Assembly (NCBI RefSeq): GCF_921293095.1
Contig: NC_060258.1
Span: forward strand, 8,136,607-8,200,606
DNA: 64,000 nucleotides
Direction: 5' to 3'
DNA from: Ischnura elegans
Lineage: Eukaryota; Arthropoda; Insecta; Odonata; Coenagrionidae
The notes below the pieces were generated by a model. That model did no database searches. It was not told the origin of the DNA and worked only from the letters and a program-made list of their open reading frames with translations. A program made the translations under genes and the position numbers. Shown here in pieces: positions 8,487 through 64,000 of this stretch; within the stretch, counting starts at the first letter, position 1; each line of letters opens with the position of its first letter.

Positions 8487-10039
8487 TAGGGTTGTTCAAG
8501 CCTATCAGAACGGTCTAAAAAAACGAATGTATATCACTTCTGATGTAATTTCATTTCGATTGGGATGAATGACAGATGCGTTGAAAAAGTAACGATGGAA
8601 TTATTAGCAATCAAAATACGAACAATTTTAAACGCCGCCAAAAACGGTCGGCCATCTTGAAATAGAGGTGATGACGACACAAGCCTGTACGGCTGGCCTG
8701 TACCCTCGATCGCTCGATGCCAAGCTGAGTACTCTGCATGCCGACTGGACATTTGCCAAGGCTATTCCTTATTTTGAAATGGCCTATGTTGTGCATGAAG
8801 CTTCCGGATGGATCAAGGCGACATGAAATCCATTCTTCAAGTTAGGCAGGCAACGTATGTAGCGTTGACAGGAATTGAAAGTTTTGTATAGCTGCATTTG
8901 CTAGGAAACTACGTGCAGTGAACTTTCATTGTGCCTCTAGTGCAAGTGAACACAATTTGTGCCCTTAATGTACCCCTAAGTGAATGATTGCATATAGACG
9001 ATGAAGTAAAGAGTGAAGTGAGTTGTGAATGTAACTGCTTTGACGAAATTATTTATTTCTTCCATGCTAGTTCAATCAACCCTATACATTTCGATCCAAG
9101 GTATCTAACTATTGCCTAGGGGATATTTTTCATATTTGAGCTAGTTGTGCTTTAGGGATACATCGAACGCATATTAATTTTCAATCGTTTGTTCGCTTCT
9201 AAGTTCCGTTTGATGTTATTACCTATTCATTTTGAGCATTCACGAGTGTTTACATTTCACGAATTTCGTTGCGCTGTTGTTTGTTTTTGTTTTGGTCATA
9301 TTTTGGTTACGGTAAGAGTACGGGTAAGAGTAATAGTGAAATTCGAAGTTTTTTGATGTTACAATAACCGGTTTAGCAATTTGTTTCAGCCTATTCATTT
9401 CATTGTCCTCGAAATGTCAATGTGAAATAACGTAAACTGATTCTAAGTTGTTAGTGATGAGTGAGAAGTGAGGTGTGGAGAATCTTTCGAACCTCAAGGA
9501 GTGCAAATTCTTTTAGCGTGTGCAGAGTGATTGGAAAACCGATTATCATGTTTTATTAGTGTTTTATATTTATTGTGAGTCAAGTTTTTCATTGAATCAG
9601 TTGATTCGGAATATACTGATTATATGTATCAAAAAGACAACTCGTGAAATGTGTACGTTGTAGTGCTATTTATGATATGATGAGCAATAAACATGTACAA
9701 GTGAGGGTAATTTTGCTTATTATTACTCTTACTAAAGGATAAATTTGGATTTTCTTTAAACACTGATCTGGCGGCAGACGCTGGAGATCTTGAAAAAAAG
9801 TGGAATAACCCTGCTGAGTCACTTAAACGACACTACAGTAGGGCATCTACAGGCTTGTGACGTCACACATCAATTCAAGATGGAAGTAGGGCTTTTTGGC
9901 ATAACGTAAAATTTGTCACTGTTTAAAGCCTTCTCTAAACATGTACAATGAAGAAAATAGCATAATATTATTGTCATTGCTCCTTCTGAAGCACGATCTT
10001 TCGATTTCTTAAATAAAAAAAATATGGCGAAGAACCCTA
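8487..10039. mobile_element. TSD-less TIR element at AA^TT (TAGGGTTGTTC tips), 1,553 bp
   Basis: Its left end is TAGGGTTGTTCAAG; its right end reads TAGGGTTCTTCG on the other strand. Removing it joins GCACAA to TTTATACC exactly as in the uninterrupted relative at 8402-8415, so no target bases were duplicated. TGACGACA lies 185 bp from the left end and TGACGTCA 174 bp from the right end. No transposase frame is visible, so it is presumably non-autonomous. Confidence 0.75.
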
Positions 10040-10560
10040 TTTATACCATGGATGTGGCCTAAAATATATGCGCATATTATACCATTTATATGCTCCTTCT
10101 GGCACGATTTATACCATTGATGTGACTAAATATACGTATATATTTTTTTTAGATCACGAGATGTGGGTCAATTGTAAATATTATTAATTTTTTCCAAACT
10201 TCGCCAACGTTTCGGACATTATATTTGTCCATCCTCAGGGCTTTAAGTCTGATGTTGTTTTTTAAAAACGACATCATCATCAGACACAACAACATCAGAC
10301 TTAAAGCTTCAAACAACATTATATATATATATATATATATATCAATATATATATATCAATTATATATATATATATAATAAGGGGTCGTGAAGCATAAAAG
10401 TTTGGCTAAATATACGCACATATTATATACCCATATATACCATTAGTATGCACCTTTAGGTACATGTTATGCACATTTTATACCATATCTACGAACCTTT
10501 TATGCATATTTTATACCGTTGATATGTGATAATATGCAGTTGCATAATATTCGAAAATTA
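10040..10560. repeat. ATAATATGC tract (right part) with a fold-back and a TA microsatellite
   Basis: This continues the tract interrupted at 8487. It includes a fold-back at about 10190-10312 (arms GCTTTAAGTCTGATGTTGTT and its complement, with a GCCAACGTTTCGG segment beside it) and a (TA)n run at 10319-10378. No genes. Confidence 0.65.
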
Positions 10561-11169
10561 CATGAATAAAAATTGATTTCTGGAAACGAGGAGAAATTTA
10601 ATGAATCATTCATCTAGACACAGCATAGGTACATTGCACTAAAACAAGGCACAATCCTTCTGCGTTGTATCACAAATATACAAATATTCAGTTAGGAGTC
10701 CTCTATCATCGCAAATTTGGTTTAAATATCATGTGAATGACATCTAAAGACAAACATTAACCCTTCCATAATCGTTACTCATGAAATTGCGATTAGAAAG
10801 TACAAAGTATGTCACACGAATTCACAATCACAACACACGCGATGATTCATTCCATGACATCCGCATGGTTGAACATCTACGATCTTTTCTTAGCGAATGT
10901 ATTAAAAATGGTCCAAAATGTGATTCCAAGCCACAAAGAGGTCTTCTAATCGCATAATTATCTCTGTGTTAGTCATAGAGTTGTGGCGAGCAATCACGCA
11001 AACGATGTAAGCAAGCCGTTCTTGAAAATGCACTCCGAAACAATAAAGATAATATTGTCATTAATAATCACAAATTAAAATAATAATATGCATATGTGAT
11101 CAAGTATGTGATATCTTCAGGGCGAAAGTGCAGCTCACAACCTGGATCAGTACCTAAGTGCCAAAACTT
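10561..11169. other. Unassigned AT-rich sequence
   Basis: No coding potential, RNA gene or repeat boundary was recognised. Confidence 0.5.
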
Positions 11170-12928
11170 CTCAGGGAAAAATTTCTGCTGTGTAAGTCAT
11201 TTGGAACTGTCACCTATCTGCTTTGTACCACTGATTTGTATGTGCTTTTGAACTACTGTGGAATTGAAACACGGTACACAGCAGTTCATGACGTCTTAGC
11301 ATCCTACCATGTCATCAACTCATTTGTAACATATTTTGAACTGCCTCGGATTTCCATTGGAAACTGCTATGGGACTCATTTGGATTTAAATTTGGAACTC
11401 GTTTGTACCACTCGTTCATCCGTTTTGAAACTGATTTGTACCAGTTGGACACCCATTTGGAACTCATTTGTACACCATGCCACCTGCTTTGTAGCAGTTC
11501 TAGATGGCGTATTCAATTTTCTTGAAGTTTATTTTAGTCTGTTTCGGATATTTAGGCAAAATGACTATTACGAATGGAAGTGCGGCAGTGCCGCAATTTC
11601 ACTATAGCTCCATTGCTTTGCAAAGCAATAGTCATAAACGAAAGACCTTCAAGCTTGACAAGCTTAACACAAGTTTCATGTTTTCATATAGGGGAGTGAG
11701 GGGTAAGTCACTTTGGTGGTCAAGAAAGTCCTTATCGAGAGCTTAATTCCGATCTTACGTGGTTGATGTGGATCATTCAGTGTCCATTTTTGAGTGGAAT
11801 GCCTTCGTTTCTGGAAAATATTTTTCTTGAAAACCGTCATGTTAAATATCTGAAAATGCTATGGGAAATGCGAAAAAAGGCCTTTCCGGGTAATCGAACT
11901 TGTCAACCTCGACATTGAAATATATTTTCGAAGGAGGGATTCATGGCGAAAAAATTCAACCCTAAAATACGGATCCAAATATGGACATAAACCATTTCCT
12001 AGGGATCGCGAAGACAATACATCGGTATGTTTTATCATAGAGTAAGTATATTATATACTTACTCTATGGTTTTATGTATATTAATCTATGCAAAATACTA
12101 CTTTTCCGGTAATATCAAAGAACGAAAGCAATGAAAGAAAAGGTTGCAAATATGCCGTAAAATTCGCAATATTTATAATTGCGAAGTATACTTTGAAAGT
12201 ATAGACATTGAATTTTTACGATAATAATATACTTGGAAACGCAAAAAAACGCGAGCGCTATGAATTTGTTATTGAATACCTTTATTATACGCAACCAAAA
12301 TTCTCGGTACGTAGTGAAGGTAATCTCGTCGCATTTCAAATCGGACCCAAAAATACGATTTAAGCCACAAGGAAAATAGAATAATTTTTAAACTAATTCG
12401 AGTGATTATTTGGGAGTTCCGTTTCTATTAACTGACTTGCGATTATTTCTTATTAAACCACGTATGCATTTTTATTGCATATATTAAAGAATTTTCGTTT
12501 TCTCGACCAAACGTATCAGACTGAACCTGGCCATGGTATGTTGGCGCGTAGAAGACAGTTCCAAAACAAATGATCACGTATATAAATCGCATGGATTTGT
12601 TCACAAAGAATTACAAACGTATGGAAAGCCGTTATACATGAATCTTCTCAGTACACAACAGTTACAATACGAATGATGACGTCTGGAAATCCTGCCGAAT
12701 CGTTCAAACGTAGTTCCAAATGAGTAGAAAGCAGTTCCAAACGAACACACTCTGTACAAAGGAGTTCCAAAGGGGATCACAAATGAGTTACAAACGTCTT
12801 CATATTTCTAATTTTTGGTACAAATGAGTGAAAATGAGTTTCACAGCAGTTCCAATGCAGATTTTGGTGTTCCAAAGCAGTTTCAAAAGGCTTCCAAAGC
12901 AGTTGCAAAGCAAAAATTTTTCCCTGAG
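11170..12928. mobile_element. TIR element with arrays of TTTGGAACT and TTTGTACCA subterminal motifs
   Basis: The left end is CTCAGGGAAAAATTT and the right end is its complement, 1,759 bp apart. The left 300 bp holds repeated TTTGGAACT and TTTGTACC words. The right 370 bp holds their complements (AGTTCCAAA, GTACAAA) at similar depth. This mirror arrangement is typical of transposase-binding repeats in non-autonomous DNA transposons. The open frame at 11158-11607 is made of these repeats and is not a gene. No clear target duplication was identified, so the superfamily is unassigned. Confidence 0.6.
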
Positions 12929-13269
12929 TTCGTCTTTCCTTGGAATAGCCTTCCTTCACTTTTCAAGCTGGGACTCTGACTGAAAAAGTACCGTCATAAG
13001 ATATACATTTAGGTAATTAAAAAAATTAATTAAAGTACTGGGAATAACACTCAAAATTAGGAGCTGATAATTTCAGATTTGCTTTCAAACCCTATGACAA
13101 ACGACAACGACTCACGTACGTGTACTTACTTTGATTTTAAATAAAGTCCTGTTCTTCATACCATGAAGCTTATTATTCCTTATCGTATATGCGTTACCAG
13201 AATAGTACTGTGACATAAAATAGTTCCGTAGACCCATCTTTTCCTCATTAATATTAGATTTTTCAATAG
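12929..13269. other. Unassigned AT-rich sequence
   Basis: Nothing recognised, other than a pyrimidine-rich stretch at 13250-13269 that could serve as a splice acceptor for the next feature. Confidence 0.4.
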
Positions 13270-13409
13270 ACGTTCTACTACTACGGCAGTATGGCTACGG
13301 CTGGCTACGGGAACAACTAACAACAATGAACAACAACACAACGGCCATGGACAACGGCAATGGCTACCAAGCTGCCTACCTCGCTAGACCGGAATATGCC
13401 GGTGTGTAA
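13270..13409 (+). CDS. Candidate terminal exon or exon relic, Asn/Gly/Tyr-rich
   Basis: A TTTTTCAATAG acceptor-like sequence precedes a GC-richer island. In one frame its start reads Tyr-Tyr-Tyr-Gly and similar residues, then stops. In another frame its second half reads an Asn/Thr-rich segment ending in AYLARPEYAGV and a stop at 13407-13409. AATAAA follows immediately at 13410-13415. A one-base slip in the AAC repeat would join the halves. It could be a last exon, a relic or a processed pseudogene; no family was recognised. Confidence 0.25.
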
Positions 13410-13546
13410 AATAAAAAAATAATAATAATAGTGGAGTATTCTGCGAACGATACGAAATTGTTAGTGATATATTAAAACATAAGTTTTTCACATTTTTTGA
13501 TACAGAGGATGTATGATCATCGATTTTTACGGATACAATCAAGTTT

Positions 13547-13915
13547 ACGGCGGCATAATATTTAAATATAATGTGCATATTATTCGCATATTATGTGCAT
13601 AATCGACGGAATATTATTTGCATATTATGCCTATCCATTTATGCAACTTTCATACTGAATAGGATTTTTGAGTTTGCTGGGTGGCTGCTGATTTATGATT
13701 CTTATATGAATCATAATTAACGATGAAATGTTACTAACAATGTAATAATATACATATTATGTCAATATTATAGTAATAGTTTACGGCGGCATAATATTTA
13801 AATATTATGTGCATATTATTCGCATAATATGTGCATAATCGACGGAATATTATTTGCATATTATACCTATCCATTTATGCAACTTTTATACGGTATAAAT
13901 TTTGAGTGTGCTGTG
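13547..13915. repeat. Two direct ~130-bp copies of an ATAATATGC-type repeat
   Basis: Segments at about 13547-13680 and 13786-13919 are nearly identical. Each starts TTTACGGCGGCATAATATTT and ends TTTGAGTNTGCTG. They are related to the tracts at 8196-8486 and 10040-10530. Confidence 0.75.
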
Positions 13916-14110
13916 TGGGACTTATTCCATCATGATATAACAGGGCATTTTAGTGAAACTGTTGACTTCGTCGGCGCCGAAAGTCGATGGCGAGAAATGG
14001 AAAGGTAGCTGATGTGCATCTGAAATGTTTTATAGTTCATAACAAAGTGATACTTGCGTATAATATTGGCGAAAGCGTATACTCATGTGAAATGTGTATT
14101 CTTTTGGCAG

Positions 14111-14112
<2 letters not shown>

Positions 14113-14145
<33 letters not shown>

Positions 14146-14146
14146 A
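14113..14146. repeat. (AAAT)n tail of the LINE
   Basis: Tandem AAATA repeats on the plus strand are the (TTTA)n 3' tail of the minus-strand LINE, directly after its AATAAA. Such tails act in target-primed reverse transcription. Confidence 0.85.
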
Positions 14147-14373
14147 CTTTATTGGCTCTAGGAATCCTTTCCTTTGGAGCCTAAATTAATACATAATCAT
14201 AAACACTCAGGCTGAGAAGGTTAACATAAAAAAAAGAAGAAATCATGAAACACTTAACCAACCAACTCAAACAACCACCTGTATACAGATTTCCAAAGAC
14301 ATGAAACAAAATCGAAAACCATACAAAAAACATAAAAACCCAAAAATTGCAAGTTGCAGACGCTTATATAAAT

Positions 14374-17258
14374 TCAGGTATCATAAAAATAAAAAGAAAA
14401 CAAAGACTTTTTGAAATTATTGAATGTTGAGATATTTTTTAACTCTTGAGGAATCGAATTCCATACATGACATGAATTAATATAAAATGAATTTTGGTAC
14501 ATGGTTGTTTTATGAATAGGTACAATTAATTTATTTTTATTTCTTGTAAATCTTGTTTTTTTCATAAAGTTATCTATGTAAGGCTGGAAAATGTAACAAG
14601 GAGTTTCAGTTTTTAAAAGTTTATACATAAATAGACCCATTTGAAATTTTCTTCTTTTTTCAATTTTTAACATTTTTAATTCCTTATAATATGGAGTGAC
14701 ATGCTCATAATATCCAATGTTACACACATAACGCAAGATACAATTTTGTATTTTCTGTAATTTAGATATCTGACATTTATTAATGTTCGACATCACCAAA
14801 GAACAGTAATCAATATGAGGAATCAACAAAGCATTCTCTAGTTTGAGTCTCAATGGTATTGGCATTAGGTTACGGAAGCATTTTAACTGGTGCAAAGATT
14901 TAATTACCTTATTAGAAATGCATGCTATGTGTTCGTCCCAAGTTAGTGTTTTATTTAGAATAACGCCTAAATTTTTAACCTTTTCAGAATAATCTATTTC
15001 TACGTCATTTACTTGAATTTTAGGCAGTAAGCCGATGTTTATGGAAGACAAGACCTTGGCACTGCCTATTATAATGCTCTTAGTTTTCTGTGAGTTTAGT
15101 TTCAGACAATTTTTAGACGCCCATTCACATATAATTGAGATATCTTCGTTAACTTGTGCAATGGCGCTAGAGATCGCATTGCGATCGCAGTCAATATAGA
15201 TCTGCAAGTCATCAGCATATAGATGGTACTTACAATGACGTATCTTATTTGGGAGGTCCTGAATGTAAATGACAAAGAGCAATGGCCCCAGTATTGACCC
15301 TTGGGGGACCCCATGTTCGACAGGGAGTAATTCAGAATGTACATTGTTTTTCCGATCATTCACCGCCTGGAAACGTTGACTCAAGTAAGAACGGAACCAT
15401 TGTAAAACAGAAGTAGATATTTTCAAATTAGATAGTCTTTTAAAAGTATACTATGGTTAACACAATCAAAAGCTTTACTAAAGTCGAAGAGTACCAATAT
15501 TGTTATTTTCTGCTTATCCATTGAAAGTCTTATGTCATCTCTTATTTTAATCAATGCTGTTTGAGTACTATAACCTTTGCGAAACCCAGATTGAAAATTG
15601 TTTAAAAAATTATTTTTAGACAGATGTTCAGTAACACAATTAAACACGAATCTTTCAAGAGGTTTTGATAAGGCACACAGTATTGCAATAGGGCGGTAGT
15701 CAGACATTTCTACAGGATTGGGCTTCTTTTTAATTGGTTGAATGAGAGCAGATTTCCACAAGGAGGGGAAGTTAGAGTAATCTAACGAGCAATTATAAAT
15801 TGAAAGCAAAATTGGAAGAGCTAGATGAAGAATCTTTTTAATTACCTTAATACTGATTTCATCTACTCCCGAAGAGTTTGAATTTACCATTGAAATGTAT
15901 TTTAATAGTAGATCGGGGGTAAAATGAGGGAAATAAAGATTTTCATCGCTAAATTCACGCTCAATGCAAGTATTGACATCGAGACGCTCTTCCTCGTCTA
16001 TACAATGAGACGATGTGGAACTATTTAGAAAATAGGTATTAAGCTCATTGGGGGGGAAATTAATATTGGTGGGTTCATTTCTGGAATTTCCCAGACCCAA
16101 TCTTTTAATTTCTTGCCACAGAGAACGAGCGTCATATTTATCTGATAAGCAAGAAAAGAAGTAGTTAACTTTTGCATTATGCTGCATTTGCTTCACTTTA
16201 TTTCGGGAGACTTTATATTCATTGTATTTTTGAGCAGACCGAGTTCTTCGAAAGTGCCTACGTAAAGAATCTCTGTGACTCATGGCGTTTTGTATTTCTT
16301 GAGAGAGCCAGGGACATGGGTTACGTCTTAATTTTATTTTTTTAATGGGGGCGTGTCTATCTAAAAGACAAGTAAGGTGGGAATTGAATATTGCCACTTT
16401 TTCATTGACATCACGCGTTAAAAAGAAATCCTCCCATGATAGACCGTTCCAGCCCATTTCAAACATAACGTAATCAAGTTTAGCCAAATCCCGGAAACAG
16501 ATTTCAGGAGGTTTATATGGTGTCGGGTTGAAAATATAGTTCACATACACTAAGTCATGCTCTGATAGAAAGTTCACAGATTCTTGACCAAAGTCATCCA
16601 CTTTTCTGGCATCGTCAACAATGATTAGGTCAAGCAAAGTCTGACTTGATTCAAGAATATGTGTGGCTTGAAAAGAAGGCAGATGAAGATTATAACTAAA
16701 TAATAAATTCTTAAGATAAGCACTCTTACGTGTATCTTTAAGCACATCAATGTTGAAATCCCCACAAATAATGACATTTTTATACATAGGTATGTACTTA
16801 CATATTAAGGTTTCAAAATCATCACATACATAGCAACTATTTGGTGGTCTATACATAACTACAAACAATAACTTGCCATTAGCATTAGAGACATCAATAA
16901 ACATAAATTCAGGTTTTCGAGGAGTACCATCGGACTTTTCAAGGACTTTACAATTAAAGCGATCATGAATATACGCAGCCACACCACCACCAACTCTATC
17001 GAGTCGATCATTCCGAATTAACTGATAATTTTGGAGGTTCACCATATTATTGTTTATGTGTTCTTTCAGCCAGGTTTCGGATATTCCAATTAAATGATAA
17101 CTTTTTGCATAAAAATAATGTCTAAATTCATCAATGTGCGCAAATAAAGATTGAGCATTGACATGACATACACTAAGTTTTTGTGGCTCGCGTACAACAG
17201 TAGCTTTGGTGCTAAAAGGTAATGTGTTGATTTCAGAGTTTAAACGTGCACATGTATC
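14374..17258 (-). pseudogene. LINE ORF2: endonuclease and reverse transcriptase, one frameshift
   Basis: The N-terminal half is an apurinic-type endonuclease (SETWL, then CGDFNIDV and SEHDLVYV catalytic-region motifs). The C-terminal half is reverse transcriptase (FSKAFDCVNH, VPQGSILGPLLF and YADD near 15219). Reading shifts at an A-run (15438-15441 on the plus strand), consistent with one deleted base. The endonuclease domain begins at about 17200, upstream of the first ATG (17045). No in-frame ATG lies between it and the ORF1 stop, so the true start is unclear; the frame is open from the ORF1 stop codon. Confidence 0.85.
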
Positions 17259-18227
17259 CTATTTGACCCTCTGTAGGTCTTCTTCGGTGTTCACCTGGAC
17301 TCGATCGGCACCTTCACTTTTTCTTACATACACTTTTCCATTTCTTATCCAGACAAACTTGATTTTACCCTCCTTTCTTAGGCTGCGGGCTATGCTGTGT
17401 AGTTTTCTGTTAAGTGGGGTCAATGATTCATTTACATAGATGAGGGGATTCAGTGAATGGGGCTTCAAATGGGGCACATCTAAGTCCTTCAAGTATAAAT
17501 TTCTTTTCCTTTTACGTAGCTGGACAAATTCCTCTGCAACACGGGACCTCATGAAGCGTACTAAAATTGCACGGCTTGAGTTATCCGCTGAGCGACTACC
17601 AACGCGGAATGCATAGTCAATATCATTGATATCAACTTTTAACCCCAAAGATAATCCCGTTGCAATAACGAGGGAATCAACAACTTCAACGTCAGACGTA
17701 GGAATACCTCTTATCTCTACCACATTCCGCAATTGCTCCTGCTCAATTTGGTTTAAGCGAACTTCACAATCGGACAGTTTGCTAGTGAGAACTTTATTTT
17801 CACTCAAGAGCTCATCCAGCTTATTACTTAATTTTGAGAGGTTATCGTTAATAAGCTCAATAGACTTCGCGTGCTCACTCACAGATACCTGCCATGTAGA
17901 GATGGTATCCTTAAATGCAATCTGCTCGTCGTGGATGGAGTTGACGCGCAGCAGAAGGGTCTGCAACAGCTCCTTTGTGGTTTCCTCCTCGCCCGGAAGA
18001 GTAGGAGACGCAGCACGGATGCCTCTCACGGGGGTTTCCTCTCTGCGGTCTGTGCGATGTTTCCCAAGACATTTGCTGCAAGTCCACGGCTTTTGCAGAT
18101 CTAGGATTGTCTTGAAGTCCTCCTCAGTTAGAGAATTGCAAGACGGATGTTGCAAACTCTTGCATGCACTGCAGGAGAGGCTACAGCCGCGTTTTGTAGG
18201 AAGGCCACATATTACGCAATTGGGCAT
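17259..18227 (-). CDS. LINE ORF1: PHD-like zinc finger, coiled coil, RNA-binding C-terminus
   Basis: The protein is 322 residues from the ATG at 18227. Residues 1-50 contain Cys/His pairs (CVICG, CSACKSLQHPSC, CSKC) as in PHD fingers of CR1-type ORF1 proteins. The middle is a predicted coiled coil. The C-terminal 150 residues resemble the FP-like domain found in many insect ORF1 proteins. It probably chaperones LINE RNA. It ends in TAG and is in the same frame as ORF2. Confidence 0.8.
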   Translation of the reverse strand: MPNCVICGLPTKRGCSLSCSACKSLQHPSCNSLTEEDFKTILDLQKPWTCSKCLGKHRTDRREETPVRGIRAASPTLPGEEETTKELLQTLLLRVNSIHDEQIAFKDTISTWQVSVSEHAKSIELINDNLSKLSNKLDELLSENKVLTSKLSDCEVRLNQIEQEQLRNVVEIRGIPTSDVEVVDSLVIATGLSLGLKVDINDIDYAFRVGSRSADNSSRAILVRFMRSRVAEEFVQLRKRKRNLYLKDLDVPHLKPHSLNPLIYVNESLTPLNRKLHSIARSLRKEGKIKFVWIRNGKVYVRKSEGADRVQVNTEEDLQRVK

Positions 18228-18316
18228 TACGAGGCGAGCGAGAATAGGTCTCAAGCGAAAACCGAGCGACCGCGAACAACACGACCGTTCACCTTCACTG
18301 CCTGAGCGAGACTGTT

Positions 18317-20602
18317 GAATTTTTTTGTAATAAAATAAATCAGAATTTAGGATAAAATTTCCTTTAAAATGACGTATAGTTCATTATTATAGCATTCAGT
18401 GAAGCCAGGATATAAATTTGCAAAGTACAGCGGCACATCATTTTGACGCCGACAGTAGAAGAAAACGCTGTCTTCTTGGCTGGCACTCGAATGCATGAGG
18501 ATCAGCGTTGCTCTATATTTTCATATTTCCTCCCTTGACTTTAAACATCATGGAATTTCCTGTGTCCTTCCGTAAATGAAATTGAACAAGTGCCGTAAAT
18601 AATTTGAGTCCATCGTACCCATCGAGAAACACCGCTATCTCGATTTTTGTTGAAAAGTTGAGTTTTTATTCTACGGCGGCCGAATTATCGAAACATTTCA
18701 GTTTCAAGTTATTCAGTCAATGAAATATGGATATATTATTAATATTACAGTTATCTTCGCTCACATAGCATACGAGTTTATCATTCCGTTTATTATACTC
18801 TTATTTTTCCGTAACGCTCATCCGGACAGACGGCATGCATCGAGGCTTTTCTTCTAATTTCCTCCGTGGGAATGCAGACGATATTTTTTCTGGGGTGTTA
18901 TTGCACAGAGGAACAATGCACCACTTGTAATTTTCCCTTATTTCACCCATGTTCTCCTTTAAACGCAACGTGGCTCTTCCAAACCTGCAGTTACTGGGCT
19001 TGGATCTTGGACTCCTACTGAACTATGACGTCACGGCCTAAGATTAGTGGGGGCGGTATTTTTTAGCCCGCGAAACTCGGGAGACTTTTGGGAGTCATTT
19101 TCTAGTGTATAAACTGACTTTTAAGCGGAAAAAAGTATATTGCGGTACTAAGTGTTAACTGTAGTATATCAGCATACTGCTTATAAAAAGTATGCAATTT
19201 CCCTATAGATGGGTCATTTCCAAATATAAAAAAAACAGGCGATACAGAATGTTGATTTCCCTATGCTAAAAAGATTGAAAAAATATACTGTGGTGATAAA
19301 AATGATCAAAAAGTACTAAATAATACGACAAATAAAACATTTATTCACAAAACACAAAGCAATGTATTTGCATTCAATATTCCAAAATCTACTCACATAA
19401 CTGTAAATCAATTCTTGAGAACGAAAAAAATCCTCACCGTATGTTTTTTTAAATATTAAGTATTGTAGCAGCGAGCATCTATGATATGAATCTAGTTCAC
19501 TCCAAATATATTACTTATGATAAACAAAATATCCACCTGCAACCAATTTTCCCAAATCTTTTCAAACGACGGAAAATGAAACCACCTACTCATTGAAAAT
19601 ATTCCGCATCGATAATGCGTGTGTTTAAAGTGAATTTCGCCCAGTTAAAAATTCTTTATTTATCACAAAGCAATCCATTTGTTATAATTATTACCAATTA
19701 TCTCCAAACAATTACAAATTCACTGTTACGCATGTAAGAAATTATTGCGTACCGCTATTCAATTTCTCTGATGTTTAGCTTTGATAATAAATAATCCATA
19801 ATATAATAATCTTCCGATGATGTGAACTACACTTTCTTGAAAAATGTTTACTCATTGCAAAGCACTGCATTTGCCACCAATATTTTCAAATCTGCGTATC
19901 CATGACATTGTTCGTATTAATTTTCGTTTTACCCATCTCATTTAATTAATGATTAAGTAATTCCTGGAGTATAGGCCATGTTATATGATACCAAAAAGTT
20001 CTTAGCCAACGTTTCGGTTTATTTGAAAACTTGTTTAGGGATATGCATGAAAAAATGAGAATAGAATAAAATAAAATAACATACAATATTGATAGATAAA
20101 TAAAGGTTACAAAAAAGTTTTTTTACAATAACATAATTTTTAAAAATGAGGAGGGTATACACAAGAATTTTAACATAACCTTGGACCTAACGTAGTTTTG
20201 CACATATATGTTTATTGATAGTCGGTAACTAAGCTATTACTAAACATATTTACCATTAATTTCTAATAATTAAATGAAAATACATTTTGCTTAGGTTTTC
20301 AAAGTCTGTTTTTTTTTATATATCTGTTAGTTGATTTAGGTGTATGAACCTTTTCTTTGATTTTGTTCGTATTTAATGAGATTCTATTTTATTAGTAGAC
20401 GGCCATTAATTATGTGGGGTGATTTTGGGAATCCTCCTTAATTCCTTCCCTGTAGTGAGATTGTTTTCGACGCCATCCCTCTACGCCACGTGATTGTTCA
20501 CAATACGTATTTTCAGTGTAAACACGTTAATATATGCTTCATTGAGCTGGATTTATTTAAAAAAACAATTTTTTAAAATTATTTTTATTCGAGATTGGTT
20601 AA
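18317..20602. other. Unassigned AT-rich sequence
   Basis: There are no convincing genes. TGACGTCA lies at 19026-19033, 172 bp before a TTTCCCTA terminus-like sequence at 19198-19205, possibly the right end of another TSD-less element. A GCCAACGTTTCGG word occurs at 20012-20026. The rest is simple AT-rich sequence. Confidence 0.4.
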
Positions 20603-21302
20603 TAGGGTGGTTTCCTATTATTTTTTATTGCCTAAATCGAAAGATTATTACTCCTGGAGTACGTATTTTACGCTTTTAGATTTTTATTTGACGATATCTA
20701 TTTTTTGCAATTAAATGAAAAGTGAAAATTTTCAATCGCGCGAAAACGCGACCGGTAAGTATGAATGCTGGGAAAACTCCGTGTGACGTCGTTCTGGTTC
20801 CCGCTGCCGCAAGTGAGGTGACCTTGGGGCGAGGCTCTGAGTGCTGATACGACGCAGGATGCTAGCAGGTAGCTGAGTACCATGCTAGCTGGTAGCGCTT
20901 GGCTTAAATAAGGAATATTAACACCCCATCCAACAAAGGAAACTTTCTGACCATAGGCAGTTTTAATAGGTGATTATTAAGAGATGTTTCCCTGAGCTCT
21001 GTGCCCCATGTATGCATTGGTAACCTCAGACGATGTAAAACTCCTATCTTCTCGTATAGAAACTAGGTCCCTGTGACGTCACGTGGAGTGGCATCGCATG
21101 GGCCTTTTTCAAATGGGGATAAAATTGACCCTTGCCATTCGTCTAAACCGGTATTTCTAAAACCAAATAATTTGTATATTACGAATACACTAATGGTGGG
21201 TAACGAATCGTAATCAATGCCTTTCGTTTATAATGAAATACGTGCTCCAGAAGTAATAATCTTTCGATTTAGGCAATTTAAAAATAATAGGAAACCACCC
21301 TA
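20603..21302 (+). mobile_element. MITE family A, copy 1 (TAGGGTGGTTTCC tips), rearranged right end
   Basis: This copy starts TAGGGTGGTTTCC after AA and ends CCACCCTA before TT, with no target duplication. TGACGTCG lies 181 bp from the left end. The right end is an inverted copy of the left end (TAGGCAAT...AATAGG) in place of the usual right end, so this copy has two left tips. Family A averages 660-700 bp and has no coding capacity. Confidence 0.85.
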
Positions 21303-29362: not shown

Positions 29363-31779
29363 TAGGAGGGAACACTCAAAATTAAAAATTGGTTTTCGTT
29401 ATTTAAAACCAAAAAGATATGAATAAAAAACACACACGCCAAATTTTAGAGCTCAAATTCGATTTGTAACCGAGATAAGTAGCTTTGAAAGTCCGCTAGG
29501 AGCTTCGGCCACGCCCACGGCGCGAAACGTATTTCTATTGGCTGACGCCGCGTGACGTGTGAACCTCATGAATGTCGCGAGAGTAATGCTTGAAGAAGCA
29601 GTAAACACACTGCGTTCGTGGAAATAGTGGCCAAAAGTTTATCGTCATGGCGAAACACGATGTTAATTTGGTTCTGGTAGGTACCAGAAGTGTACTGACA
29701 TTATTAACAGGGACTCTGGACAATTTTTTGTCTCAAAATGAATCATTTCATTGAAATGAAACTTCTTAAGATGAAATGTTTACACTCTTGAAAGAGACAG
29801 TAATCACGGCAATTATTGTGGATGCTTTAATTTGTAGACTTACCATCGTAAGATCCTTTACTTATTACTGGTTTTTAGTTTCCGGATGTAAATTGTGAAA
29901 TAAATGAACAAATGTGCTATAGCTATAGCTGTTGCCCTCTGAAGGGAGGAAATTCGGGGTTTTCTCCGTTTCTTTTAGGATTAGGATTCAAATTTCGTTG
30001 GAACATAATTTTTAAAAGCAGAGGTCTCGCTTTGGTCCACCTATGCTCCTGATAAATGTTCAAGTCAGTTTCGTACTATGAAAAATGGTAAACAATTGTC
30101 ATCAAAATGAAAGGGTAACTCAGAGATGGGGATTTTTACATGAAAATATCCGAATTCACTTATAGTTCACTTATATTTACATCAGAGTTACACTTACAGT
30201 CACTTTCAAAAGTTTTAGGACAAAGCTTGTGGCACCACTTCTGCTTCTCAAGGAAATTTAGTATCCTATACTCCTTTCGTAGTTATCTGCTGCACTCCGC
30301 TGACATTCCGCTTGTGATTATATACATGCACACAAAGGGGCAAATTATCTTATACTGCCAATTTATCATTCCCCTTCTATTTATGTAGGGTGTAATGATT
30401 ATTTCATGAGCATTTACTGCATACTTGCACCGGTTTTTTCCCTTAGTGGTTAAAGTAATTATTACATGATTTTTGACATGTAACGGGTCGCCGCGGCGGT
30501 GGCCTAGTGAGCAACGCTATCAGCTCGGGTAATGAAGATTGAGGGGTCTGGTCTGTCTCTCATAATTCTTTCAGCTCCTTTTCCTACTTATTAACAGGTT
30601 TTTTACAATCGTATTTCAGCTGTATTTGATTTGGTGCTTTTATTATTGCCGATGCGAATTTTTAAAATTAAAAGAAAAATGGTGGATAAAAGACTGGCGT
30701 TAGCATTAACGTATAGTTTGAAGTCTAGCGAAAGGAGTCACACATAATTTATTATTTGTCAATTATTCTTTTTCGATTAATGATAGTTCAAACTATTTAC
30801 TAGCATTCATTCAGTCAGTAAGTATTTACCTCCGGTATCTCTGTTTTGTTGTAAGATTTGCAAAGTTATCCGTGTTTATTATTTACTATTTGTTCTTCTA
30901 TTTATAGACCTGGTGGCACCGGGAGTCAAATGTGCTTATTTCTGTTTATTGTGAGTAATTCGATATCGTAGTGTTCCTGGAGTACAAATTTGAGATTTTT
31001 ATGTATTTGTTCGTACTATTTGACACATCACCAGGTTAGCGTCGAAGATTCTTTCCGTTGCAGTGGTTGGCTTTTAATGCGCAAGTTAGAAACAAAGAGT
31101 GAAAACCAGGGCAAATACGCAGTAAATTCACACGAAATAATCATTATATCCAACATAAATTGAAGCAGAATGATATATTTGCAATTGAAAAGTGAAATTT
31201 CCTGTTGAGTGCGTATATATTTAAGAACATACGAAATTTTTGCGATGTGAGGTCAAAGACAACAAAAGGAGTAATGGAAACAAAATCTCTTTGAGAAGCA
31301 GAAGAGATTTACATTAAAATGGCCCTCACACATTCTATAACAGCCTATTTATGAAGGAATATGCAGTCTCCGGGCAGCGTCGCACCACCGCCTTCCCCGG
31401 TCTGGGTCGTTTGGCACCACAAAAAATACTTTTCTGGCGTTTAACGAGAGGTAAATTCACATCTCGGCACACAACAATATACATAAGGTTTCCTCCCACT
31501 CATTTAAAGTTCTGAGTTTTATGTTGTATTTACTTATACTCGAAATAACGTATACGACAATGCACTCCTTATGCAAGCAATGCAGATATCATGAGGTTCA
31601 CACGTCATCAACATGGCGTCGCCCCAGAAATACGTTTTTGGCGCGGAATTCAAGTTGAAACTTCAAACTGCTCTAGGGGCGAAATTATTCTGCGCTCAAT
31701 GGTAAAATTTGGTGAGAGTCTTTCTTACGCCCATTGCTATAAAAATCAGACAAAATATTTGGTATTGTAATCCCTTCTA
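29363..31779. mobile_element. TSD-less TIR element at AA^TT inside the transposase gene, 2,417 bp
   Basis: Left tip TAGGAGGGAACAC and right tip (reverse) TAGAAGGGATTAC are the ends of imperfect TIRs of about 240 bp that share CGTATTTCT and GACGTGTGAACCTCATGA. Excision joins GCGCAA to TTATAAG and restores the transposase frame with no added base. TGACGTGT lies 190 bp from the left end and its inverted relative 172 bp from the right end. No transposase of its own was found; frames are short. Confidence 0.8.
30482..30560 (+). other. Possible tRNA-derived SINE head
   Basis: GCGGTGGCCTAGTGAGCAACG resembles a pol III A box. A GAGGGGTCTGGTCTG segment about 35 bases later is only a poor B box. It shares AACGGGTCG with a tRNA-like stretch at 56078-56160. 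This is weak evidence. Confidence 0.3.
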
Positions 31780-55129: not shown

Positions 55130-57660
55130 TAGGGAAGTGCACTAGTGTTTCAAATGCATCAAACACATTTTTTAAATTAGAGTTCAGAATAACATAATGT
55201 CGTAAAACCACAGTTTAAATCCTAATAGTGAATACTTGATTCGAGATGACCGTCTGAAATATGGAAAAATTCAAAGGCCGCGAAAACGGGTGTCCATGTT
55301 GAATATTGGCCGTGACGTCACAAGGCAGTAGCAGAAGGCAGCTTCTACACAGTTTAGTTCTACCACTATTATTGCATAGAAAAATTACAGAATTTTAGGG
55401 TATCCGTTTTTTGCTGTCATAAAATATCTTCAGAATATATATGTGGACGCTTCTCTTTTGAGTAAACGACTTCATCATTGCGTAATATATTAATATTCAT
55501 TTACGTGTCAACTTCAAGTTTGGAAAGAGTAGTACGAATAGCACATTGAATCTTTAATAAATGCATGATGGCATTTATTTTTCGCTGGTTATATTTTGGC
55601 ACAATGCCGTTTATCATGCCAAAACTTTTTTGTAAGAACCGAGTCAAACTAATAAACCTATTTCAGACGTTTGCTGCAAGACTTATTCGTTGCGTATGTA
55701 TTCACGCCGGCCGGAACGTTCGCCCTTCGCAACTAGAATCATGGGATGTTAGCCTTATTTTCGAGCTGGCTGGTTGTTGCAATGGTTCGCTGTCCAGGAT
55801 GGGTTCAAGAAAAGGTAATCTTGGTTGGGAGAAGGAAAATTCCAACGATTTATAAATGGTATACCAAACTTTGATGTATTTATGGTTACTGAATTTTTGA
55901 ATAAGGAGGACAGGTTCAACGCTCCATAGAAATGCGAGACGTTAAGGCTAACAAGGGGAGACCTCGTACCTTGCTGCATCTTTTTCAATTAGGGCGTTAG
56001 TTAGGCTGTAATTAATTAATTTTCATGCGTTACTTTTTACAAGTTATATATATAAATCCAAAATATCCACAGTCACCTAACGGGTCGGTTGGGGTAGTGG
56101 TAGCGTGCACGATTCAAAGGAAAGATCTCACCCTAAGGCTCGTCGTTCAAGACTACGTCATGGCATTATTTTTTGTTGTCTTCATTGTGATCATACGGCA
56201 TCAAGTTTATCATTAATTATAATTGCAGCAATCATTGGCATGAGACAATTTTTTAATCATCATTATGGCGTTTAGGTATTTGAGCAGTGTCTTTACAAAC
56301 GCAGAGATACGATGACTACAAGGGTTGGTGTGCGCTAAAATGTTAATTTTTTCTTTGCTTATACTGACCAACTTCCACATTAAAAATGAAAACCACTCTT
56401 GCAAGAGCACATACCATTAAAGGCTCGCGGCAAGCAACAATATGCGTACAGGCATGATTAATAAGAACACAAAGCGAATATAAAATGCCATATATCTCGA
56501 ACACTTGTAATTCACATTACTCCAAAGGGAGTTTACTTACTCAGTACATACCTCAGTACCTTGTACTCAGTACCTACCAGTTTACCTCAGTAGCAGTGCT
56601 AAAAGAACCATTCTGAAATATAATTTCAACTAACAAATAGGATGAAATAAAAGTTGATAACCCTGGACCGGGCGCGCTGGCGTATAAAATACGTCAATCT
56701 TTGAAAACCAAGGATTTCGACATTGTACGTACATTCAGGGCTATAATGGTCTCGTGTATTCTTACAATGTACTTTGACTGCCTATATTGCGAGTTTTCAA
56801 AGTTCGAGGTATTGTAGCTAATTTTTTAGATCAGCAAGATGAACCCGTCACCAGTGGAGTACAAATTACGCCGCACGACCTGCCGTGTACCTTTATATCT
56901 GTATCACCTATAAATGTACTAATTTCAACAAATAAAGATTAACTTTAACAGAAATCGTTTGTTATCATATATGCACATATCATGGGCAAAGTACGCATTT
57001 TGCCCGGTCGTGTAAAAAAAAAAGTCGCGCTATAATTCTTTAACCAAACTACTTTCAGTTTATAAATTACGTAGGTCTACGCGGAAGATGCTATATTTTG
57101 ACTCAACACTCTTTCTGATGTGACTGAGGTACCTATTAAGTAAATTATTATTATATAAATATCAATTTGATCTTACAATACCTTCAAATGATCTTCAAAA
57201 CAGAATATCATCGATAGGTAAGAGTCACGAGCAGCCTTGAACCATTTATTCCGTATAGCTTGTGCTTAAGGCACGGGAATGAATATCTTCTCCAGGCTTT
57301 TGTTTCGACGTCGAGATGAAATTTGGAACAAAAAATTATTTATAATTCTATTTTGAATTCATATTTTCGGTACTAGACGACATTTTTAGGAAGCAAACTC
57401 CACCGATTCCCGGAAACTCTCGCCGCGCTAAAGAAGGCGACGGAATACAGCGATACTCCACTGGTGACTACTGCCTTGTGACGTCACATCTCAATCAAGA
57501 TGGAGGCACTGTGTTTCAGCGCAACATGAAATTTTCCGACTTTCAAAACGTTTTAAAGTGCATACCCCAGATGCAGAAAATAAAAGTGACTATACTAATG
57601 TTTCTTTTTTAGGCTAAACTTTCAAATTCAGCAATAAAAAAAAATTAGTGCACTTCCCTA
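55130..57660. mobile_element. TSD-less TIR element at AA^TT (TAGGGAAGTGCACTA tips), 2,531 bp
   Basis: Both ends read TAGGGAAGTGCACTA. Removing it joins CCAAATAA to TTCGTGTATT, matching the family A consensus without extra bases. TGACGTCA lies 183 bp from the left end and 174 bp from the right end, with CAAGGCAGTAG next to it on both sides. The right part shares TTGTGACGTCACA and CAAGATGGA with the element at 8487-10039. No transposase frame was recognised. Confidence 0.8.
56078..56165 (+). other. Possible tRNA-derived SINE head
   Basis: GGGGTAGTGGTAGCGTG is a good pol III A-box-like sequence, and CGTTCAAGACTACG about 45 bases later resembles a B box. It does not fold as a canonical tRNA by eye. 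It lies inside the TSD-less element. Confidence 0.35.
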
Positions 57661-58819: not shown

Positions 58820-60476
58820 CAGTGGAGTTTCCTTCATCAAAGAAAACGAAAGGCATTGATTGCGATTCGTTACCCACCATTAGTGTATTCATAATACACA
58901 AATTATTTGGTTTTAGAAATACCGGTTTAGACGAATGGCAATGGTCAAATTTTATCCTCATTTGAAAAGGGCCAGATTGGCGCCCATGCGATTTCACTCC
59001 ACTTGGGGTGCGGTCCAATGAATGCTACTTTCGCTACCAGACGCTACAGACAGCAGTGCTCCGGAGCTCCGGTCCATAGGCGCTACGTTCGCTACGGGAA
59101 TTTCTTTTCGGACCGGTCAGGAGCGAAGTCAAGATGGCAGAAATGAACGAGGGTGGGCAAACTGGGTTTATGAAATCGAATATATGGCTTTAATTGCGAA
59201 TTGAGGTGATAATGGTAATTGAATATTAATAAATATATTCGAATATCATTTAAATGAATTATATTTTCCAATATCGAGGTTCCACTAAGTAAAGCAAGAA
59301 ACTTTGGACCGTATTTCTCACACCTACCCTCGCCTAACCCTTCAAAATGAAACTCATTACCCTAGAAAAGGAAGAATTAGGTACTCTATCGTTTTCTCAG
59401 TTGAAACATGTCAACTTATTATGGCTAAAGACTATTAAAAACATTAATCCATTTCATGTAAATCCTATTTTACTTCAGATTTTAAGTTATGGCATGAGTT
59501 GATTTGTCGTTATGTGTTCTTACAACCCTTTCTTATATTACATGCCCCTTTTAATAATTTTTTGTTGCCTTTTGTATGTTAAGGCTGCTTCCAGAGACAT
59601 TAGAGTTCATTTTGGAGGAGATACGAGAATGTTTGCGGATAGATAGTTGTTGCTATATATTTATTTAAATCACGATTAAATTTACATCTATTTACGAAGT
59701 GCGTCTACTCCGTTACTTCGTAGTCACTTTTATAGGAGAAAAGCGTCCACATTCAGCGTCCAACAACTGCAACGTGAGTAAACTCTCCATTGCCTCAGTG
59801 CATTCCCTTCGAATTTCCGCCAGAAATTGACTCGCTCCTCCGCTGACCCAAGTTTTCAGGGGAGCGTCTGGAGCTGGTCTGGAGCGAGGCGGGAAATGGG
59901 TGTATGACGTTTGCCGTGACGTCACAGCCTAACCTGTAGCGCTCCGTAGCGAATAACGGACCGCTTGGGGGCGCTCCGAAGCATTGGTAGCGTTCAACGG
60001 ACCGCACCCTTGGCGTCACAGGGACCTAGTTTCTATACGAGAAGATAGGAGTTATACATCGTCTGAGATTACCAATGCATGCATGAGGCACAGAGCTCAG
60101 GGAAACATGCCTTAATGATCACCTATTAAAACTGGCTAAGGTTGGAAAGTTTTCTTCGTTTGATAAGGTATTAATAAACCTTTTTTAAGCCAAGCGATAC
60201 CTGCTAGCAGGGTACTCAGCTATCCGCTAGCATCCTGCGTCCTATCAGCGCTCAGAGCCTCGATCAAGGTCTCCTCACAAGACGGGAGGGGGAACCAGAA
60301 ATACGTCACACGGAGATTTCCTTACCCGTCGCGTTTTCGCGCGCTTGAAAATTTTCGCTTATCATTTAATCGCGAAAAATAGATATCGTCATTTAAAAAT
60401 CTAAAAGCGTGAAATACGTACTCCAGGAGTAATAATCTTCCCATATAGGCAATAAAAAGAATAGGAAACCACCCTA
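58820..60476 (-). mobile_element. MITE family A, copy 13, split by a Harbinger-like element
   Basis: Pieces 58820-59005 and 60010-60476 are one reverse copy. The right tip CCACCCTA is followed by TTC. The foreign element sits in the TGACGTCA segment. Confidence 0.8.
59006..60009. mobile_element. PIF/Harbinger-like TIR element, 1,004 bp, TTG duplication
   Basis: Ends GGGTGCGGTCC and GGACCGCACCC are inverted, with TTG on each side (59003-59005 and 60010-60012), a 3-bp duplication as in PIF/Harbinger. A TGACGTCA occurs at 59918. Short frames within it show no recognisable domain. Confidence 0.75.
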
Positions 60477-61678: not shown

Positions 61679-62340
61679 TAGGGTGGTTTCCTATTATTTT
61701 TTATTGCCTAAATCGAAAGATTATTACTCCTGGAGTGCGAATTCCACGCTCTTAGATTTTTAAATGACTATATCTATTTTTTGTTATTAAACGAAAAGTG
61801 AAAAATTTCAAGCGCGCGAAAACGCGACGGCCAAGTAGGAATGATGGGAAAAGTCCGTGTGACGTACTTCTGGTTCCAGCTGCCGGCGTGTGAGGTGACC
61901 TTGGGGCGAGGTTTGAGCGCTGATACGACGCAGGCTGCTAGCAGGTGGCGGAGTACCCTGCTAGCAGGTAACGCACGGCTTAAATAAGGATTATTATTCC
62001 CCTATCAAACGAAGGAAACTTTCCGAACTTGGGTATTTTTGATGTGTGATTATTATGGGATGTTTCCCTGAGCTCTGTGCCTCATGCATGCATTGGTAAT
62101 CTCAGACGATGTAAAACACCTATCTACTCGTATAGAATCTAAGTCCCTGTGACGTCACGTGGAGTGGTATCGCATGGGCGCCAATCTGGCGTCTTTCAAA
62201 TGCGGTTGAAATTACCCGTTGCCATTTTTCTAGACTGGCATTTCTAAAACCAAATAATTTGTATATTATGAATACACTAATGGTGGGTAAGGAATCGCAT
62301 TCGATGCATTTCGTTTTCTTTGATGAAGCAAACTACCCTA
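61679..62340 (+). mobile_element. MITE family A, copy 14, full length
   Basis: A 662-bp copy with tips TAGGGTGGTTTCC and CTACCCTA before TTT. TGACGTAC lies 181 bp from the left end and TGACGTCA 183 bp from the right end. The sequence after its right end (62341-62400) is also found after copy 11 (57744-57800), so the two copies share a duplicated flank. Confidence 0.9.
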
Positions 62341-62595
62341 TTTGGTTCTTGTAATGGGCTTTTACGTACAAACAAGCATTATTAATGGCATGGCACACGA
62401 GATACACGCTTTTAGGAAGAAAATGGGCACTTCTTTTTCCGTTTTGGTGTGCATAATTTTTGACGATTTTATTAACCATAAATGACAATTATTAGAATCG
62501 TCAAACAATACGATAGCCATCTCTTCATATATGCCATCCGACCTCAATTAGCTAATATCTTTTGTCTTGAGGTTGTTAATAGTGATCCAACGTGT

Positions 62596-62985: not shown

Positions 62986-63211
62986 CAACCTGTATCACTT
63001 CATCATCATCATCTTGTGGTGTCCCCCGCGCCAATGCTGTCTCCATTCCCTCCTGTCTATCTCCCTGAAGTCTCCATATCTTCCAATTTTATTACGTTGT
63101 CGATAAACTTCAGCATTCCCCTTCTCCTGATCCCTTCCACCGTTTCCTCCAAAGCTACTTTTAAAATTCCATTCCCTCTCATCTAATGTCCCAACCAGTT
63201 ACCCTTCCCAG
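62986..63211 (-). mobile_element. 3' end of an RTE-like retrotransposon, minus strand
   Basis: On the minus strand, a reverse-transcriptase C-terminal-like tail (DRREWRQHW) is followed by a (GAT)n tail (TCATCATCATCATC at 63000-63015). It is 5'-truncated at the G-rich repeat. Confidence 0.55.
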
Positions 63212-63423
63212 TAGCGTAGCCAGGGGGGGGGGCTTCCGGGGGGTCCGGACCCCCCCCCCCTCCGAAATATATAAGCACAATTATTTTCCTTAATAAAAGA
63301 AAACAAATTATTGAAAAATCATGAATTTACAAAGTATTTTTTTTAACAAATGAAGTTTTTTCGATTGTCAAAAGTGTTGAAATTAGTTTAAACCCGCAGA
63401 CAACACAACAATTATGGCCACAA

Positions 63424-64000
63424 TAGGGTAGTTTCCCATTATTTTTTTATTGCCTAAATCGAAAGATTATTACTCCTGGAGTACGAATTTCACACTTTTA
63501 GATTTTTAAATGACGACATCTATTTTTCGCGATTAAATGAAAAGTGAAAAATTTCAAGCGCGCGAAAACGCGACGCGTAAGTAGGAATGATGGGAAAAAG
63601 TCCGTGCGACGCATTTCTGGTTCCCCCTCCCGCCTTGTGAGGTGACCTTGATCGAGGCTCTGAGCGCTGATAGGACGCAGGATGCTAGCGGGTTGCTGAG
63701 CACCTTGCTGGCTGGTAGCGCTTTGCTTAAAAAAGGTTTATTAATACCTTATCAAACGAAGAAAACTTTCCGACCTTAGCCAGTTTTAATAGGTGATTAT
63801 TAAGACATATTTCCCTGAGCTCTGTGCCTCATGCGTGCATTGGTAATCTCAGACGATGTATAACTCCCATCCTCTCGTGTAGAAACTAGGTCCCTGTGAC
63901 GTCACGTGGAGTGGTATCGCATGGGCGCCAATCTGGCCTTTTTCAAATGAGGATAAAATTTGACCCTTGCCATTCGTGTAAACCTGTATTTCTAAAACCA
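63424..64000 (+). mobile_element. MITE family A, copy 15, runs off the window
   Basis: It starts TAGGGTAGTTTCCC after ACAA and is continuous to the window end. TGACGTCA at 63898 is in the usual position. Confidence 0.85.

What the first reader, a model, noticed from the sequence alone, without database searches (positions are those of the whole stretch)
8487..64000. A superfamily of TIR elements with AA^TT insertion, no target duplication, and a CRE-like octamer fixed near 180 bp from each end
Four families with different interiors and lengths share three traits. First, the tip is TAGGG or TAGGA. Second, they insert between AA and TT with no duplicated bases (elements at 8487-10039, 29363-31779 and 55130-57660; family A copies such as 20603-21302 and 23763-24445, with single good ends in about ten more). 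Third, a TGACGTCA-like octamer lies inside both ends. Measured distances from tip to octamer (left/right) are 185/174 (8487), 190/172 (29363), 183/174 (55130) and 181/183 (61679). The octamer survives when flanking sequence does not. TSD-less insertion between AAA and TTT is known for the Spy group of DNA transposons; I do not know of a fixed CRE-like site there. It could be a transposase or host bZIP-factor binding site, and the spacing is close to one nucleosome repeat.
Basis: partly seen in the sequence, partly recalled or inferred. Interest (0 to 1): 0.9.

Follow-up and report, generated by a model that had tools for sequence, protein, structure and literature searches.

The report
ISL2EU transposons with paired inner repeats
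These are decayed or shortened copies of a known kind of animal jumping gene (ISL2EU); they do duplicate two bases when they insert, and each end carries a second, 18-20 base repeat about 180 bases inside, near the starts of the element's own genes.

Summary
The elements are real and the octamer positions are right, but two claims change. (1) They are not TSD-less. AA^TAGGG...CCCTA^TT with empty site AATT is letter for letter A|AT|AGGG...CCCT|AT|T, the published ISL2EU pattern. In the 55130 family, 11 of 11 position-matched pairs in which both ends depart from AT carry the same dinucleotide (AC or AA); of 8 fetched pairs, 5 agree and 3 depart at one end only. The target is AATT, not Spy's AAATTT. 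(2) The parentage is ISL2EU: decayed THAP pieces lie inside the right ends of the 29363 and 55130 elements and of an unlisted host element (7584-19204). (3) The octamer is half of an 18-20 bp subterminal inverted repeat: near-constant TGACGTCA plus about 10 family-specific bases that match between the two ends (9-10 of 10) in five families, one of them carrying both ISL2EU genes. Family A is an exception. The repeat lies 172-193 bp inside the tips and, where starts could be read, 83-138 bp before gene starts. Best reading: a binding site for an element protein overlapping its promoters, like P-element subterminal repeats. Binding is untested.

The parts
7584..19204 (.). Its two ends were paired because the inner repeats matched; the tips match too
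8488..10038 (.). non-autonomous element nested in 7584-19204; AT at 8486-8487 and 10039-10040; family of 308 candidates, best 40 scored at 99-100% over 271 bp, 15 full-length copies 95.9-98.8% over the whole element
29364..31778 (.). deletion derivative of an ISL2EU element inserted in a pogo/Jerky-like DDE_1 reading frame
55131..57659 (.). deletion derivative of an ISL2EU element inserted in a family A copy; 1040 exact AATAGGGAAGTGCACTA tips genome-wide
61680..62339 (.). family A copy (example); octamer-like sites at 181 and 183 bp, but A's two ends do not share the second half of the inner repeat
7776..7794 (+). left subterminal repeat TGACGTCATAGTTCATTAG
19015..19033 (-). right subterminal repeat TGACGTCATAGTTCAGTAG
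8672..8689 (+). left subterminal repeat TGACGACACAAGCCTGTA
9848..9865 (-). right subterminal repeat TGACGTCACAAGCCTGTA
29553..29571 (+). left subterminal repeat TGACGTGTGAACCTCATGA
31589..31607 (-). right subterminal repeat TGACGTGTGAACCTCATGA
55313..55331 (+). left subterminal repeat TGACGTCACAAGGCAGTAG
57468..57486 (-). right subterminal repeat TGACGTCACAAGGCAGTAG
18858..18950 (-). THAP exon-1 remnant; its first codon, aligned to the L034 start, is 83 bp inside the octamer
   Evidence: tblastn E 6.6e-6 against the whole window
18468..18575 (-). remnant of the start of an ISL2EU DDE exon
   Evidence: tblastn E 3.2e-4 with 1 of 3 DDE queries
31307..31501 (-). broken THAP exon-1 remnant; an ATG lies 104 bp inside the octamer, in another frame than the best-matched piece
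   Evidence: tblastn E 1.4e-4 (window); Pfam THAP 24.2 bits against cut-off 23.9 for its second half, no Pfam match for its first half
57188..57292 (-). broken THAP exon-1 remnant; an ATG lies 103 bp inside the octamer, in another frame than the matched piece
   Evidence: tblastn E 1.7e-5 (window)
55855..55923 (+). possible YqaJ-gene exon-1 remnant (23 residues), about 540 bp inside the octamer
   Evidence: tblastn E 1.3e-5 and 3.1e-5; no reversed-sequence control was run for this query

Best explanation
The elements are ISL2EU DNA transposons (PIF/Harbinger-ISL2EU-Spy superfamily) and internally deleted derivatives. They insert into A|AT|T and duplicate the middle two bases (shown for the 55130 family); the true tips are AGGG/AGGA. 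Gene-bearing relatives carry two convergent genes, a THAP-HTH-DDE transposase and a YqaJ nuclease, each starting near one end (shown in one element and part of a second copy). About 172-193 bp inside each tip lies a second inverted repeat of 18-20 bp: a nearly constant CRE-like half (TGACGTCA) and a family-specific half that matches at the two ends of an element (shown for five families; family A is an exception). It lies upstream of the gene starts that could be read. Inferred: the family-specific half is a docking site for an element protein (most simply the THAP transposase) at each end, and the constant half belongs to the promoter of each gene, so binding could both join the ends and control transcription. 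Shortened copies keep the sites by descent and are moved in trans.
For: Duplication: AATAGGGAAGTGCACTA 1040 places (backward control 0), VAGGG form 35 (control 14), BTAGGG form 24 (control 1); opposite-strand V-B pairs 1-6 kb apart: 11 found, 11 of 11 complementary, 0.76 pairs expected if independent. Of 10 V ends fetched out of 35, 8 had a readable other end: 5 duplicate the same non-AT dinucleotide, with A outside it at 10 of 10 ends. Target: AA 20 of 20, TT 15 of 15 readable (20 of the 40 listed copies were fetched). Genes: THAP remnants in 3 window elements, a possible YqaJ remnant in one. Gene-bearing relative L029/L032/L037: DDE_Tnp_4, HTH_Tnp_4 and YqaJ, with THAP in the copy L034, AT at both flanks, octamer block at 172 and 191 bp from GGG. 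Inner repeat: left/right matches at positions 9-18 are 10,10,10,9,9 of 10; between families mean 4.45 (40 comparisons); 19 of 20000 random pairings as good, about the share of the true pairing itself. Starts at 83, 93, about 120 and 138 bp inside the octamer.
Against: No intact copy with AGGG tips and genes was found; the two long 55130 copies fetched are copies interrupted by other sequence. In 3 of 8 resolved fetched pairs only one end departs from AT, read as later mutation. Published ISL2EU tips are usually GG; these are AG. None of 3 YqaJ-domain queries and 1 of 3 DDE queries matched the window; the YqaJ exon piece in 55130 lies about 540 bp inside the octamer, not about 120 as in L037; no coding trace was found in the 8487 element. 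Family A matches 1 of 10 in the second half of the inner repeat and its left octamer is poorly kept. Own-tip versus own-inner-site similarity is not clearly above cross-family (8 against up to 7 of 10). The 7584-19204 ends were paired by their repeats, so that family is not an independent case. Protein binding and promoter activity are untested.
Confidence: 0.85

Rival explanations
1. TSD-less Spy-like elements: TAGGG...CCCTA inserted between AA and TT.
For: Empty sites are AATT; flanks AA/TT are invariant in the 8487 copies read.
Against: The same letters are read equally well as A|AT|T with an AT duplication; at rare sites the 'terminal' T/A and the facing flank base change together (11 of 11 pairs), which a fixed tip would not do. 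Third flank base is not A/T. Remnants are of THAP and perhaps YqaJ genes, whereas intact Spy has one reading frame (PMC11304231, passage).
Confidence: 0.03
2. The inner repeat is only a promoter: CRE plus E2F-like site driving each of the two genes, with no role in transposition.
For: It lies 83-138 bp before readable gene starts; a GCGCSAAA-like sequence precedes it in several families (a listing selected by that pattern).
Against: Two different genes do not need the same family-specific 10 bp, yet the two ends match 9-10 of 10 while families differ; identity stops at position 19-20.
Confidence: 0.25
3. The inner repeat is only a protein-binding site for transposition; its place before the gene starts is a by-product of compact ends.
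For: Family-specific half shared by both ends; subterminal inverted repeats in P elements and zebrafish THAP9 elements (PMC7776569, passages); 9-bp subterminal motif bound by the Harbinger3_DR Myb-like protein (PMC9710019, passage).
Against: The half kept between families matches a host CRE consensus (recalled), odd for a site that must stay specific to one element protein.
Confidence: 0.3
4. The octamer spacing is chance or common descent of one end sequence.
For: Family A copies make up 4 of the 6 sample occurrences; families may share an ancestral end.
Against: Peak in a sample taken without regard to the motif; in the gene-bearing element the two ends align over the repeat but not over the stretch between tip and repeat; same layout with different tips.
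Confidence: 0.05

Closest known systems
ISL2EU (PIF/Harbinger-ISL2EU-Spy superfamily)
   Same: AT duplication, A|AT|T target, THAP/HTH-DDE transposase and YqaJ gene (PMC4482050, parts 1 and 2 of 4 read; here)
   Different: tips AGGG/AGGA rather than the usual GG; a subterminal repeat, a word that does not occur in that paper's main text
Spy
   Same: related superfamily, no visible duplication at first sight, AT-rich palindromic target
   Different: Spy inserts at AAATTT without duplication and has one reading frame (PMC11304231, passages); here AATT, a 2-bp duplication and a two-gene relative
Drosophila P element and zebrafish THAP9 elements
   Same: THAP transposase; short TIR plus a separate subterminal inverted repeat about 100-400 bp inside (PMC7776569, passages)
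   Different: 8-bp duplications; a different transposase core and the lack of a constant CRE-like half are recalled, not tested
Harbinger3_DR
   Same: subterminal motif bound by an element-encoded protein (PMC9710019, passage)
   Different: Myb-like second protein instead of THAP/YqaJ; 3-bp duplications for Harbinger (PMC9179366, passage)

Membership tests
ISL2EU | 2-bp AT target duplication in A|AT|T | tested here: met
   11 of 11 V-B pairs complementary; 5 of 8 fetched pairs duplicate a non-AT dinucleotide, 3 of 8 do not; AATT empty sites. Direct test only for the 55130 family.
ISL2EU | DDE_Tnp_4 transposase with THAP/HTH | tested here: met
   Relative L029/L034: THAP, HTH_Tnp_4, DDE_Tnp_4. 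Window elements: THAP exon remnants in three and one DDE-exon remnant; none in the 8487 element.
ISL2EU | second gene with YqaJ domain | tested here: inconclusive
   Met in the relative L029 (YqaJ 58.9 bits). In the window only a 23-residue exon-1 piece in the 55130 element; 0 of 3 YqaJ-domain queries matched the window.
ISL2EU | tips usually beginning GG | tested here: inconclusive
   GGG in L029/L034/L037; AGGG, AGGA or AGAA in the window families.
Spy | insertion in AAATTT | tested here: not met
   third base A in 2 of 20 left ends, T in 0 of 15 right ends, 8487 family (read)
Spy | no target duplication | tested here: not met
   (55130 family)
Spy | single transposase gene | tested here: inconclusive
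   two genes in the relative L029; only a short possible YqaJ piece in a window element

The most novel reading that the evidence does not exclude
ISL2EU ends carry a two-part subterminal inverted repeat, a universal host CRE fused to a family-specific site, placed as the promoter of both convergent genes. One site per end would then couple three things: host-cell signal (CREB/ATF), transcription of the transposase and nuclease, and docking of the THAP transposase, which could repress its own genes as it assembles the transposition complex.
Probability: 0.3. Interest if true: 0.6.

Novelty: new member of a known kind. Interest (0 to 1): 0.4.

Why it matters
It shows how an apparent TSD-less insertion can be a palindromic target read in the wrong register, a trap worth checking wherever 'no duplication' is claimed at AT-rich palindromes, and gives a simple test (covariation of the two ends at off-target sites). 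It also gives ISL2EU, for which the searches here found no described subterminal site, a concrete candidate recognition site and a family with 1040 exact tips in which to test it.

Tried and rejected
Tc1/mariner (TA duplication with GGG tips): rejected, since adding TA breaks the reading frame at the 29363 empty site and AATT is the empty site. Spy: see the membership test. Gene-bearing AGGG-tip copy: among the first 100 listed places at least five tip pairs are longer than 3.5 kb; two were fetched and both are copies interrupted by other sequence. Tip resembling inner site (Sleeping Beauty-like direct repeats): not clearly above cross-family. Octamer conservation inside family A: right end 19 of 205 windows at least as conserved, left end 200 of 205. 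L033 has a THAP start 138 bp inside an octamer (counted) but no recognisable tip. One search, a first pattern with a 16-base gap, was uninformative (14 places, backward control 10). The genome-wide gapped pattern AATAGGGN{165,195}TGACGTCA and the 29363 DNA search did not complete, so the spacing was tested on the 200 kb sample and the window only. E2F, YY1, CRE and bZIP names are recalled, not from a call. Papers: PMC4482050 (parts 1 and 2 of 4 read, plus a word search), PMC11304231, PMC9179366, PMC2836001, PMC9710019 and PMC7776569 (passages only); all others only as search listings. That the repeat is not in print rests (ISL2EU + subterminal, 0 papers), in an open-licence library only; Repbase was not available.
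Full report
The window lies in a 1.72-Gb genome of unnamed source. [quoted passage not shown]

Observation. The distance peak is not an artefact of picking: in 200 kb taken at fixed coordinates, TGACG[TC] lies at 180-199 bp of 65 AATAGG[AG] tips 6 times and at 160-179 twice, against 12 in the other 28 bins together; 266 tips with no A in the two bases before them show no peak. The 6 come from 5 tips, 4 of them family A and one of the 29363 family counted twice, so they are few independent cases.

Empty sites. Element 29363 interrupts a pogo/Jerky-like reading frame (DDE_1). Joining the flanks as AA|TT runs in frame into a cysteine-rich tail and a stop; adding TA does not. Element 55130 interrupts a family A copy, and the joined flank aligns to other A copies without gap at AATT. 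So AATT is the empty site.

Register. AA|TAGGG...CCCTA|TT and A|AT|AGGG...CCCT|AT|T are the same letters. The second is the ISL2EU pattern: AT duplication, target A|AT|T (PMC4482050). To separate them I used sites that are not AATT. In the 55130 family there are 1040 exact tips after AA (backward control 0), 35 places with the 'terminal' T replaced (V ends; backward control 14, so a good part of the 35 may not be element ends) and 24 with T kept but the next base out not A (B ends; control 1). If T were part of a fixed tip, V and B changes would be unrelated. Instead 11 V-B pairs sit at opposite ends of one element, all 11 complementary (8 AC, 3 AA duplications), with 0.76 pairs expected if independent. 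I also fetched 10 of the 35 V places with their expected other end. Two had no readable other end; 5 of the other 8 carry the same non-AT dinucleotide at both ends (3 of these 5 are among the 11), with A outside it at 10 of 10 ends; 3 of 8 have plain AT at the other end, read as mutation. The B list cannot show AT partners, so 5 of 8 is the fair rate; in all, 13 V ends agree, 3 do not and 19 of 35 are unresolved. This is a 2-bp duplication. In the 8487 family (20 fetched of the 40 listed, which are the best of 308 candidates) 20 of 20 left flanks end AA and 15 of 15 readable right flanks begin TT, but the third base is A in 2 of 20 and T in 0 of 15, unlike Spy's AAATTT.

Parentage. The search for DDE_Tnp_4 found 2144 candidates, of which the best 150 were scored. 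One element read in three pieces (L037, L032, L029; about 7.6 kb by coordinates) has ends GAAAAT|GGGGTTCTGTAC and TTCAAT|GGGCCTCTGTAC, hence AT at both flanks, with a DDE gene and a YqaJ gene in convergent order. Its THAP exon appears to hold a stop (read by eye); L034, a second copy by its end and THAP exon, has it open. The octamer block lies 172 and 191 bp from the GGG tips. The THAP start is 93 bp inside the octamer in L034 and the first ATG of the YqaJ gene about 120 bp inside in L037 (the latter counted by hand). The window elements carry THAP remnants in the same place: 18950-18858, whose start aligns to the L034 start and lies 83 bp inside the octamer, and the broken pieces 57292-57188 and 31501-31307, where an ATG lies 103 and 104 bp inside the octamer but in another frame than the matched piece. 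The reversed window gives one weak THAP hit, E 0.015. Pfam finds THAP in the second half of the 31501-31307 piece just over its cut-off and nothing in the first half. A 23-residue match to the first YqaJ exon lies at 55855-55923, about 540 bp inside the octamer, farther in than in L037, and without a reversed control; 0 of 3 YqaJ-domain queries and 1 of 3 DDE queries matched the window. The 8487 element shows no coding trace.

Inner repeat. Comparing the two ends of each element inward from the octamer, identity runs to position 18-19 and then stops: over five families (8487, 29363, 55130, 7584 and L029/L037) the left-right match per position is 4-5 of 5 through position 19 and 0-2 of 5 from position 20. 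At positions 9-18 the two ends match 10, 10, 10, 9 and 9 of 10; ends of different families match 4.45 of 10 on average (40 comparisons, 2 to 8). Of 20000 random pairings of the ten ends, 19 do as well, about what the true pairing alone would supply. The 7584 ends were recognised as a pair by this match, so that case is not independent. A scan for paired sites in the window and the 200 kb sample gave 16 of 453 candidate pairs: 11 between A copies, one palindrome, one poor match, and exactly the 8487, 29363 and 55130 elements; ten control hexamers gave 3 of 469. That scan was limited to 9 kb and so missed 7584-19204. Family A does not share the second half between its ends (1 of 10).

Mechanism. 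Shown: place, two-part structure, family-specific matching of the two ends, closeness to gene starts. Inferred: the family-specific half is bound by an element protein at both ends, because two different promoters have no reason to share it; the constant TGACGTCA half, a consensus CRE (recalled), is more likely a host-factor or core-promoter part. P elements and zebrafish THAP9 elements, also with THAP transposases, have short TIRs plus subterminal inverted repeats (PMC7776569, passages), and Harbinger3_DR has a subterminal motif bound by its Myb-like protein (PMC9710019, passage). Nothing here measures binding or expression.

Age. The best 40 copies of the 55130 and 8487 ends are 99-100% identical over 271 bp (of 823 and 308 candidates); the 15 full-length 8487 copies are 95.9-98.8% identical to the window copy. 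The families are fairly young, so retention of the repeat in them shows descent, not selection.

Verdict. New members of a known group, with the TSD-less claim refuted and the octamer claim refined into a subterminal repeat that I did not find described for ISL2EU (open-licence papers only).

Noticed in passing
window 7584-19204: Unlisted ISL2EU remnant hosting the 8487 element and a LINE-type reverse transcriptase (Pfam hits in 15426-17258, minus).
   Followed up: yes
window 4985-6931: LTR-retrotransposon-like pol: RNase H, H2C2 and integrase core domains.
   Followed up: no
window 31780-33227 and about 29243-29362: pogo/Jerky-like DDE_1 gene with a cysteine-rich C-terminus, interrupted by the 29363 element.
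   Followed up: partly
window 51610 and 52069: Two near-identical tips TAGGGTGGTGTCC[CT]ATTACATTA 459 bp apart after the same 12-bp flank, with no TGACG site at the usual distance.
   Followed up: no
window 59905-59924: Two octamer-like sites 12 bp apart, 171 and 183 bp from a TATAGGAG tip, possibly another ISL2EU-type end.
   Followed up: no
L058 about 1632-5159: Long insert inside a 55130 copy with the same 90-residue reading frame in both arms, a large palindromic (foldback-like) element.
   Followed up: no
L016 5223-5912: Paired octamer-like site with identical flanking sequence on both arms, apparently a palindromic element.
   Followed up: no
L030 794: AATAGGGTCACAAGCC close to an ISL2EU DDE gene; may be a decayed octamer block or a tip.
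   Followed up: partly
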